NCBI GenBank assembly: GCA_000697475.1
Contig: JNEU01000272.1
Location: 1-25,345, forward strand
DNA from: Lichtheimia corymbifera B2541
Taxonomy: Eukaryota > Mucoromycota > Mucoromycetes > Mucorales > Lichtheimiaceae
Reading direction: 5' to 3'
Length of the DNA stretch: 25,345 nucleotides
The position numbers and the translations under genes are program-made. This document shows, in pieces, positions 2,144-25,345 of this stretch; position 1 is the first letter of the stretch; every line of letters starts with the position of its first letter. Under the pieces are notes generated by a model. The model worked only from the letters and a program-made list of their open reading frames with translations, had not been told where the DNA came from and made no database searches.

Positions 2144-3972
2144 TTACTGGAAAGACTTAACGTGGTTCTCGCAAATGTCACGGAGCTTGCCTTCGAGGTC
2201 CTTGGAAAGAACACCTTTGGTGCGGATTTCCTCAAGAACATCCTTGTGCTCAGATTGGATGTGGCTGATGAAGTCCTTTTCCCAGTCGACGATCTTGTTG
2301 ACAGGGAGCTTGTCAAGGAAACCGTTGACACCAGCAAAGACAATAGGAACTTGGACTTGGATAGCCAAAGGATGGTACTGGGGTTGCTTGAGCAACTCGG
2401 TCAAACGAGCACCACGGTTAAGCAAGAATTGGGTGGAGGCATCCAAATCAGAACCGAATTGGGCGAAGGCAGCAACTTCACGGTATTGAGCCAAGAAAAG
2501 CTTGAGCGAACCAGCGACTTGCTTCATGGCCTTGGTTTGGGCAGCGGAACCGACACGGGACACGGACAAACCAACGTTAATGGCAGGACGGATACCCTTG
2601 AAGAAAAGTTCGGCTTCCAAGAAAATCTGACCATCAGTAATGGAAATGACGTTGGTAGGAATGTAAGCAGACACATCACCACCTTGGGTCTCACTATGAT
2701 ATGTCAAAAAGATTAGTCTTCTATGTACACATGTAATGTAACAACAACTTACATGATGGGCAAAGCGGTCATGGAACCATAACCAAAGTCCTTGTTCATC
2801 TTGGCAGCACGCTCCAACAAACGGGAGTGGAGGTAGAAGACATCACCAGGGTAAGCTTCACGACCAGGGGGACGACGAAGCAAAAGGGACATTTGACGGT
2901 AGGCAACAGCTTGCTTGGACAAATCGTCATAGATGATCAAAGAGTGCTTGCCATTGTCACGGAACCATTCACCGAAAGCGGCACCAGAGAAAGGAGCAAG
3001 GTATTGAAGAGGAGCGGCTTCAGAAGCAGTAGCAGCAACAACGGTGGTGTACTTCATAGCATCGTGTTCCTCAAGAGTGCTGACAAGCTGGGCAACAGTG
3101 GAACGCTTTTGACCAACGGCAACGTAGATACAGTAGAGCTTCTTGGCCTCATCAGAGCCATTGTTCCAGTTCTTTTGGTTAAGAATGGCTTCAAGAGCGA
3201 CAGCGGTCTTGCCAGTTTGACGATCACCAATGATCAATTCACGTTGACCACGACCAATAGGAACCATGGAGTCAACAGACTTGATACCAGTTTGCATAGG
3301 CTCGTTGACAGAGTGACGGGGCAAGATACCAGGAGCCTTGACTTGGACACGGGAGCGGCCAACAGTCTCAAGAGGACCCTTGCCATCAATGGGGTTACCA
3401 AGAGCATCAACAACACGACCAAGGACACCAGGACCAACAGGGACGTCGACAATGGCACCAGTACGCTTGACAGTGTCACCTTCCTTGATCAAACGATCGT
3501 TACCGAAAACGACAATACCAACGTTGTCAGGTTCCAAGTTAAGGGCCATACCCTATTTCATTCGAGATGTGTTAATAAACAAAGGTATGTTGTTGATAAT
3601 GATGGATGTGGGTTGTTACCTTGAGACCACTGGAGAACTCAACCATTTCTTCAGCTTGGCAGTTCTTCAAACCATAGACACGGGCAATACCGTCACCAAT
3701 GGACAAGACGCGACCAGTCTCTTGGAGGTTGGCCTCAGACTCGGCACCAAGGATGCGTTGTTCAAGAACAGAAGAAACTTCAGAGGTGGAAGCCTTAGCA
3801 GTAGCGTAGGTGCGGAAGGCATTAGCAGCAGCAGCATTGATGCGCATCTATAATAAATAAATGGTAAGCAAAGGTGGCAATGGGAGCATTGTGTTGTGTG
3901 AATGAGGAAGAGAAGACTTACAGCCTGGGCAGGCTTGGCAAAGTTGGCAAGACGAGCAGCGTTTCTCAACAT
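2144..3972 (-). CDS. ATP1: Mitochondrial F1F0 ATP synthase subunit alpha
   Basis: Four exons on the minus strand (3972-3922, 3847-3620, 3552-2753, 2693-2144) encode 542 residues, close to the ~545 of yeast Atp1. The first exon plus the start of the second ([17 protein letters not shown], then a RTYAT region) is an Arg/Ala-rich matrix-targeting presequence. The Walker A loop GDRQTGKT is at about 202-209, Walker B SLIIYDD near 300, and the family signature [16 protein letters not shown] at about 396-411 includes the arginine that reaches into the catalytic beta site. The protein forms the alpha3beta3 hexamer of complex V in the mitochondrial matrix. The intron at 2694-2752 splits an Ile codon and restores [16 protein letters not shown]. 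Codon choice is strongly C-ended and biased, as expected for high expression, which also explains long antisense open frames over the gene. Confidence 0.98.
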
Positions 3973-22947: not shown

Positions 22948-23357
22948 TGAGAGAAAAAGAGTGGGGAGGAAGGAGAGGAGTAGTGTGTGTGTGTACTGTT
23001 GTGAATAATAGACCCGAGAGGCCCTCTTTATTTTGGTGGAGACCTACCTACCTATTCCTCCCCATTTCATGTAACGTGTCACCAACAATCACCTCCCCTC
23101 CCCCACATACAAAGAGAGATTTATCATTGTTGTCCATCTATTCATTGTAGTTGTATACACCAGGAACACAGGCCCGAAAATATGTTTCAGGAGATGGTGA
23201 TGGCGATCATTATTCTTCCTTCCATGAGCCTTTTCATGACGAGAAGAAAGAGCTCTCATTCATTTCAAGAATGGGTCGCATCTACTATGTACAGCAATAC
23301 CATTGATTGATCATCAAGGACACGCAGCAAGTGCTTCTACTAGAATATATATATCCA
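22948..23357. other. Intergenic, ISU1 promoter region
   Basis: About 410 bases upstream of ISU1 on the minus strand. It contains a purine/pyrimidine-biased leader next to the ATG, a short (GT)n run near 22984 and C/T-rich blocks at 23050-23105. I see no gene or RNA. The boundary between the Fanzor 3' region and the ISU1 promoter is not visible. Confidence 0.5.
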
Positions 23358-23363
23358 TTTATT
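23358..23363 (-). terminator. Possible polyadenylation signal of the Fanzor transcript
   Basis: AATAAA on the minus strand, ~300 bases beyond the Fanzor stop codon. If used, the transcript would have a ~300-base 3' UTR, enough to hold a guide RNA scaffold. Confidence 0.35.
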
Positions 23364-23616
23364 ATACGGCATGAGAAAATAGTGGTGGTGTGTACATGTT
23401 ACTAGCTCTACAATATGGGTTCCTATCAATGACACCTATGGAAGTAGTGGTGAAGATTGACCCATGCATGGCTTGAAGGTCACGTGGACAATCATGCTGA
23501 ATAGATTCCATTCCCATTTTGGGGCTTTACTATTTGCACCACGCAAGTACACCATGTCAGCAAACATTATCGATTTGGATCCAATTCACTGTGACTTACC
23601 CCCCAATTACGCGGAT

Positions 23617-23642
23617 TTGGCGCATGCCTCACTATGCGCCAA
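23617..23642 (-). other. Perfect 9-bp hairpin just 3' of the Fanzor stop codon
   Basis: On the minus strand TTGGCGCAT and ATGCGCCAA pair perfectly around an 8-base loop (AGTGAGGC), starting 17 bases after the stop codon at 23660. In TnpB and Fanzor systems the guide RNA is encoded at or just beyond the 3' end of the nuclease gene, so this could be part of its scaffold. A terminator-like or element-end palindrome is an alternative. Confidence 0.5.
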
Positions 23643-23659
23643 GGAAGGTCTTCTTTCGT

Positions 23660-25345
23660 TTACAGCTCGTCATCTCCATCATCCGTTTCCAGCTCGTCTT
23701 CAGCTTCCACCTCGTCCACGACTTCTTGGACTTGACCACGCTGCATTGCTGCTGGCCTTGAGTCGATATCCCCATCGCTAAGCATGTACAGCTCAAAGAT
23801 CCTATGGATGTTGCTGCTTGCGCCAATGTCACGATCGAACACCTAGATAATAGAAACCAGTAAATCATTGTCCTTCGCATATCCATGGCACAAACATACA
23901 GTTTGACAAGTGGGGCACCACTTGACCGCATACACATTGTTCCGGAAATCATCGACTTGTGCCCGATCATTGCAGGTTGACGTCCAGTGGAGCCGCTGTC
24001 CATCATCATCCAAGCACCATTGTCGTGGTTTGGCATGTACAAGGCTGATACCATCATCATCATCAACAACAGGCCAGGAATCACGGATGTATTTTTTTCT
24101 GTAAGTAGATGAAAAACTGATTTAGGATGCGTGCTTTCAAAAGTATAGATATGCTTACTTGTGCTGGCAGATGAGGGTCTCTGGCTCCCTGAATTGTTGT
24201 AAGCGGCCATGACACTCATGACACGTAACGCTTGTTCTAAATTCATCAACCAAAACGAGGGGAGCTCGACGTGCGATCCGTGCCCTGAGAGTCTAAATAA
24301 TAAAAAGGTATGTTGATATTGAAGCATGAAATGATTAGCAGAGAAATAGTTACCTCGACTGGAACTGCTTGATGGCGTTTCGATGTGGCGCCAAATCGTG
24401 CAGCTCCATATGCGACAATCGTTTCTACCTCCGGTTCACCAGCGTCCTTCATAATCACGTCTTCATCTTGTTCGCGCCGTTCAGCACGAGCTGCTCGTCT
24501 TGCAAGCTTCCTTTGCCGTTTCCCACCGTTGCGATGAGCAAAGAAATCATTGCGAAGCTAGATACATTTATCCAAGTTAATCACACCCAAACAATAAAGA
24601 GCTAGTCCTTTGTACATACATCTGCGACATTTTCTAATCCGAGAATTTGATTCACTATGGATTCTTGAGCAGAAACCCTTGCTGCAAATGTAGTTGCTCG
24701 CTGTTCACGATGTCTATAATGACAGGCAAAATCATGCAGTCTAACAGATATATGCATATGATGAGATCACTGATAGCAGTATAATTTTCCATATACTTAC
24801 GCATGGTGTAAATGAGACCGCAAGTGTACATGATCAAAATATGCTTGCAAGCTGGTTGTATGATGTGGGAAGGCCTTAAGAGCCAAGTAGATGAACTCCA
24901 TGTCATGCTCACTTTTTTGGCGGGAAGACAATGTCTTTTGCTTTATCCAGTTGGAGAGGGACCGATTCCTGTGTAATGAATGGTAAATCAACAAAGGGAT
25001 TCCGAAACAACGTGACACAGTACACTTACTGGTACTCCTTGTTGGAGATTTGGATCAGATGTTGTTGCCTTGTTTGTTGATCGGCTAAGTTCTCGGTTGT
25101 GTCCGTGCCTGTAATCACTTCTCGAATGCCTGAGAGATGTAAAAGCTGAATTAGAGAGTGTGTGCTTCGCTATCCATTTTAATGCCATACCTGGATCAAT
25201 GCCAACAATTCGGGTTGCTTGTAGGCGCTGCTCATCCAAACCACCTGGTTCCTTGCTTAAATGATACATGCCGCGATGCCAATTGGTTAAATCAAGCTCT
25301 CTTGGGTAGTAACGCACATCAGCCGATGTATCAGGCATCCGCTCT
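23660..25345 (-). CDS. Fanzor RNA-guided nuclease, C-terminal part (N-terminus beyond window)
   Basis: Eight exons are visible (25345-25191, 25129-25030, 24968-24801, 24713-24620, 24557-24354, 24292-24159, 24098-23900, 23842-23660), about 411 residues; the gene continues past 25345. It is the eukaryotic homologue of bacterial TnpB, an RNA-guided DNA endonuclease with a split RuvC domain. RuvC-I is RIVGIDPG (catalytic Asp). RuvC-II is LVLVDEFRTS (Glu), preceded by the typical YGAARFGATSKRH stretch and followed directly by the zinc ribbon start TCHECHG. RuvC-III is VFDRDIGASSNI (Asp). The second knuckle WCPTCQT ends exon 7, with an unusually long acidic insert between knuckles. The last ~30 residues are acidic. 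All intron phases match and no stop or shift is seen, so this part looks intact. Seven introns argue against recent arrival. No transposase or element ends are visible. Whether the N-terminal REC/WED part exists cannot be seen. Confidence 0.88.

What the first reader, a model, noticed from the sequence alone, without database searches (positions are those of the whole stretch)
23660..25345. Intron-rich Fanzor (eukaryotic TnpB homologue) with intact RuvC triad
Spliced minus-strand exons give, in order, GIDPG, VDEFRTS + CHECH, CPTC and FDRDIGASSNI, which is the TnpB/Fanzor RuvC-zinc ribbon signature. The acidic catalytic residues D, E and D are all present and the frame is clean across eight exons. 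This copy may be an active or domesticated RNA-guided nuclease sitting next to housekeeping genes.
Basis: partly seen in the sequence, partly recalled or inferred. Interest (0 to 1): 0.92.

Follow-up and report, generated by a model that had tools for sequence, protein, structure and literature searches.

The report
Fanzor nuclease gene in jumping element
The window ends inside a gene for a Fanzor1-type protein, predicted to be an RNA-guided DNA-cutting enzyme, that sits in a transposable element with near-identical copies elsewhere in this Lichtheimia-like fungal genome; it is a new member of a known kind, and its insertion sites hint at the short DNA motif that the enzyme would likely need beside its target.

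Summary
Eight minus-strand exons (25343-23660) encode the last 419 residues of a Fanzor1-type protein with DPG, the Fanzor-specific displaced glutamate (E-x6-CxxC) and RD; Pfam PF07282 scores above its cut-off. The contig ends in an intron; contig C412 of the same genome supplies exons 1-9 (17 exons, 865 aa if joined). It is no domesticated gene: three copies 99.9% identical over 1.83 kb end at the same base (about window 23520) with different flanks; the ends are inverted repeats shared with an element encoding FAR1 and MULE transposase domains; and a 9-bp duplication (CAAAATGGG) pairs the window's right end with C412's left end. A conserved, Fanzor-specific 3' block of about 110 nt at the right end is the likely guide-RNA scaffold (inferred; folding gave no support). 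Fanzor1 in transposase-less MuDR elements of related fungi was reported in 2013, so this is a new member of a known kind. Unexpected: the dinucleotide just beyond the right end is CA in 5 of 5 Fanzor right ends and 1 of 23 other ends with this repeat, which may reflect the nuclease's TAM. Weak points: no usable structure model, no significant match to a solved Fanzor, no expression data.

The parts
25191..25343 (-). Fanzor exon 10 of 17, ends in GIDP(G): RuvC-I Asp codon 25197-25195
   Evidence: the two bases 25344-25345 are the intron acceptor AG, matching C412
25030..25129 (-). Fanzor exon 11
   Evidence: acceptor fixed by frame
24801..24968 (-). Fanzor exon 12
24620..24740 (-). Fanzor exon 13
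   Evidence: acceptor fixed by homologues P0001-P0003
24354..24557 (-). Fanzor exon 14
24159..24292 (-). Fanzor exon 15: VDEFRTSVTCHEC, displaced RuvC-II Glu (codon 24244-24242) and first CxxC
23900..24098 (-). Fanzor exon 16: second CxxC (CPTC)
23660..23842 (-). Fanzor exon 17: FDRDIGASSNI, RuvC-III Asp codon 23830-23828, acidic tail, stop
23520..23631 (-). conserved 3' noncoding block up to the right end, candidate guide-RNA scaffold (inferred)
   Evidence: 75-80% of columns identical among three lineages against 61% for introns of one pair; core motif only at Fanzor ends up to 1 mismatch; no folding support
23522..23560 (+). right terminal inverted repeat, GGGCTTTACTATTTGCACC... read inwards
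   Evidence: sharp end of homology in 5 copies; resembles left end (30 of 35 columns) and the C307 MULE end (33 of 39)
23513..23521 (-). 9-bp target-site duplication CAAAATGGG (right copy); left copy at L029 931-939 (C412)

Best explanation
The feature is the 3' half (exons 10-17 of 17) of a Fanzor1-type gene inside an element with Mutator-like (MULE) ends, which likely lacks a transposase of its own and would be moved in trans by a MULE transposase, and whose Fanzor protein is predicted to cut DNA at sites chosen by an RNA made from the element's right end. Shown: gene structure, sequence signatures, the shared element end, near-identical copies with different flanks, inverted repeats shared with a MULE that encodes FAR1 and MULE transposase domains, and target-site duplications in two left-right pairs. 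Inferred: that contigs C412 and C19 are the two halves of one insertion; that the conserved 3' block is the RNA scaffold and the adjoining flank the guide; and that after excision the nuclease cuts the restored empty site so that repair from a sister copy puts the element back (role proposed for TnpB; recalled, not tested).
For: PF07282 above cut-off (3 of 3 aligned relatives match at E<=1). Bao-Jurka motif, DPG and E-x6-CxxC present. TDG, DPG and DEFRTS invariant in an alignment of 4 relatives. Copies 99.9% identical over 1826-1828 bp with one common end. Terminal sequence at 28 places with up to 3 mismatches against 0 in the control and at both ends of C307:8057-12002 (60 of 60 bases identical), which encloses FAR1 and MULE domains. 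Of 9 left-right flank combinations, C412-C19 matches over 9 nt and C279-C109 over 10 nt, the other 7 over 0-1 nt. 3' block conserved and Fanzor-specific.
Against: C412 and C19 differ in their overlap (746 columns, 4 mismatches, one 5-nt gap), so they may be different copies. C412 reads TGG where relatives read TDG. The C279-C109 match needs an extra C between duplication and repeat, and the C124 left end pairs with none of the three right ends. Solved Fanzor hit is not significant (PpFz1 E=0.56) and absent with the longer query and the profile; NCBIfam TnpB models are far below cut-off. CxxC spacing is unusual. RNA folding is no better than shuffles (61 of 200 fold at least as well) and shows 0 of 29 compensatory pairs. 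The C174 copy has a stop codon. The 5' 1.45 kb was not scanned for domains.
Confidence: 0.8

Rival explanations
1. A domesticated Fanzor: taken over by the fungus for a cellular function and kept next to housekeeping genes.
For: Intact triad and low pN against pS; an IscU-type gene lies nearby.
Against: Near-identical copies at other sites with the same sharp end, transposon ends and duplications, 49 exon-level matches on 15 contigs, many of them degraded.
Confidence: 0.04
2. A dead or silent passenger: the reading frame is still open because the copies are young, but the protein is not made or does not act, and spread is wholly due to the MULE transposase.
For: No expression data; no folding support for the RNA; stop codon in C174; substitutions in the C412 copy relative to C278 at 8 of 754 positions, one in TDG.
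Against: Long-term constraint between the C19 and C174 lineages (pN 0.18, pS 0.76 over 860 codons) and conserved 3' block.
Confidence: 0.13
3. A prokaryotic TnpB from contamination.
For: Only the general TNB domain matches a curated family above its cut-off.
Against: 17 exons with short introns, closest relatives all from Lichtheimia, DPG and displaced glutamate.
Confidence: 0.01

Closest known systems
[quoted passage not shown] passages read)
   Same: Fanzor1 carried by an element with MuDR-like inverted repeats, 9-bp duplications and no MuDR transposase gene reported, in related Mucoromycotina
   Different: Other genera; their sequences were not compared here, so whether it is the same lineage is untested
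PpFz1 of Parasitella parasitica (PDB 9cf0; PMC11423790, passages read)
   Same: Fanzor1 of a Mucorales fungus; 34-residue local match around DEFRTS
   Different: Match not significant (E=0.56); its RuvC insertion (FRI) that binds cyclophilin was not looked for; its TAM is 5'-ATN, not CA
Unnamed Lichtheimia proteins P0001, P0002 (L. ornata) and P0003 (L. corymbifera)
   Same: Same family: 82%, 69% and 96% identity
   Different: Labelled only hypothetical or predicted protein; P0003's model seems to read into an intron and stops early

Membership tests
Fanzor/TnpB | D-X(125,275)-[TS][TS]XX-C4 zinc finger-X(5,50)-RD (PMC3627910, passages) | tested here: met
   D495-X218-TSVT-CHEC...CPTC-X5-RD in the joined 865-aa model; the two CxxC pairs are 78 residues apart. 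The P0001 and P0002 numbers were counted on gapped rows and are not used
Fanzor/TnpB | TNB / OrfB zinc-ribbon domain PF07282 | tested here: met
   29.6 bits, cut-off 26.3
Fanzor (against ordinary TnpB) | DPG in RuvC-I and glutamate six residues before the first CxxC (PMC10711439, passages) | tested here: met
   GIDPG; E-x6-CHEC
Pro-Fanzor search pattern | DPG-x(120-160)-E-x6-CxxC-x(12,18)-CxxC-x(4,8)-D (PMC10711439, passages); made for prokaryotic TnpBs | tested here: not met
   D-to-E and CxxC spacings are both longer here (D495, E711, CxxC gap 78)
Fanzor1 | TDG motif in the WED domain (PMC10711439, passages) | tested here: met
   Invariant in P0001, P0002, P0004, P0005, present in C278; C412 reads TGG; the motif lies outside the window
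Fanzor1 | Place in a tree with published Fanzor1 proteins; Fanzor fold | tested here: inconclusive
   No published alignment in hand; both AlphaFold models unusable (mean pLDDT 31.6 and 33.3); PDB search not significant
Fanzor1 | RNA-guided DNA cleavage with right-end RNA and TAM | not testable with these tools
   Needs RNA and activity data
MULE / MuDR element | Terminal inverted repeats shared with a transposase-bearing MULE | tested here: met
   Local matches LE 47 of 58 and RE 33 of 39 columns to the C307 end; scores 33 and 25 against shuffle maxima of 13; C307 encloses FAR1 and MULE domains
MULE / MuDR element | About 9-bp target-site duplication | tested here: met
   9 nt for C412-C19, 10 nt for C279-C109 (slack of up to 2 nt allowed), none for C124
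Autonomous MULE | Own transposase gene | tested here: inconclusive
   9 PF10551 hits in the genome, none on C19, C109, C278 or C412; ORFs in the 5' 1.45 kb are short (longest 157 aa stop to stop) but were not scanned for domains

The most novel reading that the evidence does not exclude
The Fanzor imposes a direction on where its MULE carrier persists: only insertions with (AGA)CA at the right-end side of the target are kept, because CA is the nuclease's TAM and doubles as the fixed last bases of its RNA scaffold, the guide starting two bases into the 9-bp target-site duplication. A nuclease passenger would thus filter the target sites of a transposase that itself sees near-symmetrical ends.
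Probability: 0.3. Interest if true: 0.7.

Novelty: new member of a known kind. Interest (0 to 1): 0.45.

Why it matters
It gives a concrete Fanzor1-MULE pair (passenger, candidate helper transposase, both ends, duplicated target sites) in one fungal genome, with copies that look young. If the CA asymmetry is real, the TAM of an untested Fanzor can be read off insertion sites, and the open question of what Fanzor does for a cut-and-paste transposon, whether it retains or steers insertions, becomes testable.

Tried and rejected
Domesticated gene: rejected on multi-copy ends and duplications. hAT origin of the ends (the C307 duplication can be read as 8 bp): the hAT hit on C307 (4694-4882) lies outside the repeat-bounded element, the MULE hit inside it. 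Rfam scan of 23300-24000: no match at E<=1. RNA fold of the 3' region: z -0.55; alignment fold: 0 of 29 pairs with a compensatory change. AlphaFold: two jobs, both unusable, so no fold search was run. Left end of the C174 copy: only doubtful matches, not used. Deeper homologue search gave P0004 (E 3.4e-14, lacks RuvC-III) and P0005 (E 0.58, not significant alone). PDB searches with Fanzor-like ORFs L003 and L005 and with P0004 and P0005 gave nothing at E<0.1. Two splice errors of my own were corrected: searches used a 411-aa model and an 856- or 865-aa model; the 856- and 411-aa models lacked 9 residues.

Full report
What is there. Minus strand 25343-23660 carries eight exons in one frame with seven GT-AG introns of 57-62 nt. 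They encode GIDPG, VDEFRTSVTCHEC, CPTC and FDRDIGASSNI and end in an acidic tail. The window is a whole contig (C19, 25345 bases) of a 35-Mb, 432-contig genome; its last two bases are the acceptor AG of an intron, so the gene is cut by the assembly. The closest relatives found are Lichtheimia proteins, P0003 of L. corymbifera at 96% over 57% of the query; no tool names the species of the window.

The missing half. Contig C412 overlaps the window end by 746 alignment columns at 98.8% and carries nine more exons, with a start codon at L029 2392; one of its introns is GC-AG. Joined: 17 exons, 865 aa, RuvC residues D495, E711, D810. The C174 copy has the same exon structure, 618 of 860 aligned residues identical, and one in-frame stop. 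C278 carries part of exon 2 through exon 17 in one open frame of 754 residues. L. ornata has two full-length relatives labelled hypothetical protein.

Is it Fanzor? Pfam PF07282 scores above its cut-off. The published Fanzor/TnpB motif is met, and so are two marks said to separate Fanzor from ordinary TnpB: DPG, and a glutamate six residues before the zinc ribbon (definitions from passages of PMC3627910 and PMC10711439). The TDG motif said to be typical of the Fanzor1 WED domain is invariant in an alignment of four relatives and present in C278; C412 reads TGG. Against: the spacings of the published pro-Fanzor pattern are not met, PpFz1 is hit only at E=0.56 with the short model and no solved Fanzor is listed with the longer model or the profile, NCBIfam TnpB models stay far below their cut-offs, and no usable structure model was obtained. 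I file it as a divergent Fanzor1, by signatures, not by tree or fold.

A mobile element, not a resident gene. C19, C109 and C278 are 99.9% identical up to window 23518-23520 and differ beyond it. C174 and C67 stop at the same place. The end, GGGCTTT(A/G)CTATTTGCACC read inwards, occurs at 28 places with up to 3 mismatches against 0 in the control, or at 58 against 3 in a second form with up to 2 mismatches. At C307:8057-12002 it forms inverted repeats identical over the 60 bases compared, round FAR1 and MULE transposase domains. C412, C279 and C124 carry matching left ends. Of nine left-right combinations two match at the boundary, C412 with C19 over 9 nt and C279 with C109 over 10 nt, and seven over 0-1 nt, with up to 2 nt of slack allowed. 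The window's insertion thus most likely has the duplication CAAAATGGG (window 23521-23513), though C412 and C19 are not identical in their overlap. The 5' part of the element shows only short ORFs, not scanned for domains, and none of the nine MULE-domain hits lies on the Fanzor contigs C19, C109, C278 or C412. This is the arrangement reported in 2013 for Fanzor1 in MuDR elements of Rhizopus, Phycomyces and Mucor (PMC3627910, passages). A search for papers with both Fanzor and Lichtheimia in the held library found none; other libraries were not searched.

The 3' block. Between stop and end three lineages share about 110 nt, with 75, 75 and 80% of columns identical in the three pairs; the seven window introns share 61% with those of C174, the one pair compared (shuffled controls 46 and 47%), while synonymous sites are saturated. 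The core AATTGGGGGGTAAGTCACA is found with up to 1 mismatch only at the five Fanzor right ends; at 3 mismatches one more place appears, against 4 in the control. Position and specificity fit a right-end guide-RNA scaffold; folding gives no support, and Rfam has no match.

The CA asymmetry. Directly outside the right end stands CA in 5 of 5 Fanzor copies and in 1 of the 23 other ends listed (Fisher p 6e-5). Three of those 23 are Fanzor left ends and two are the ends of one element, so not all are independent; three of the five copies are one family, though at different sites; ends with more mismatches, seen, were not examined. The search pattern began with the corresponding TG, which favours finding CA elsewhere and so works against the contrast. 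CA could simply be part of the element's right end; against that, both paired duplications include the CA on the left side too, and both are preceded by AGA. The ends are near-symmetrical, so a bias tied to the gene's orientation may come from the nuclease, as a TAM. PMC10711439 reports that Fanzor1 RNAs take duplication bases into the scaffold (passages). With two paired sites this is a lead, not a result.

Neighbourhood. The element's end lies about 575 bp upstream of the apparent start of an IscU-type gene (NifU_N). I saw nothing that suggests a functional link.

Noticed in passing
L001 (C363:27590-27751), L002 (C312:2060-2254), L003 (C364:107309-107500), L004 (C362:91579-91779), L005 (C281:51541-51756): Five further places in the same genome match PF07282 above its cut-off. 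By eye, L001, L003 and L005 hold other Fanzor- or TnpB-like frames with E-x6-CxxC or a similar spacing, so several Fanzor families seem to share this genome.
   Followed up: partly
L061 559-1212 (C307:8458-9111), minus strand: The MULE that shares the ends carries a second open frame beside the transposase with a GDGNCGFRA stretch that looks OTU-peptidase-like by eye; Pfam gave no hit.
   Followed up: partly
window 2737-3624: ATP synthase alpha exon on the minus strand (PF00006) overlapped by a 295-codon open frame on the plus strand, probably a codon-usage effect.
   Followed up: no
window 23590-23608, minus strand: The invariant 3' motif GGGGGGTAAGTCACA contains a perfect-looking 5' splice-site sequence (GTAAGT) after the stop codon in the C19-type copies and C174; C67 has GTAAGG. 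Whether it is used as a donor is unknown.
   Followed up: no
L047 (C124, from 14191): A left end of the same Fanzor element with an internal deletion of about 270 bp next to the repeat, whose flank pairs with no known right end.
   Followed up: no
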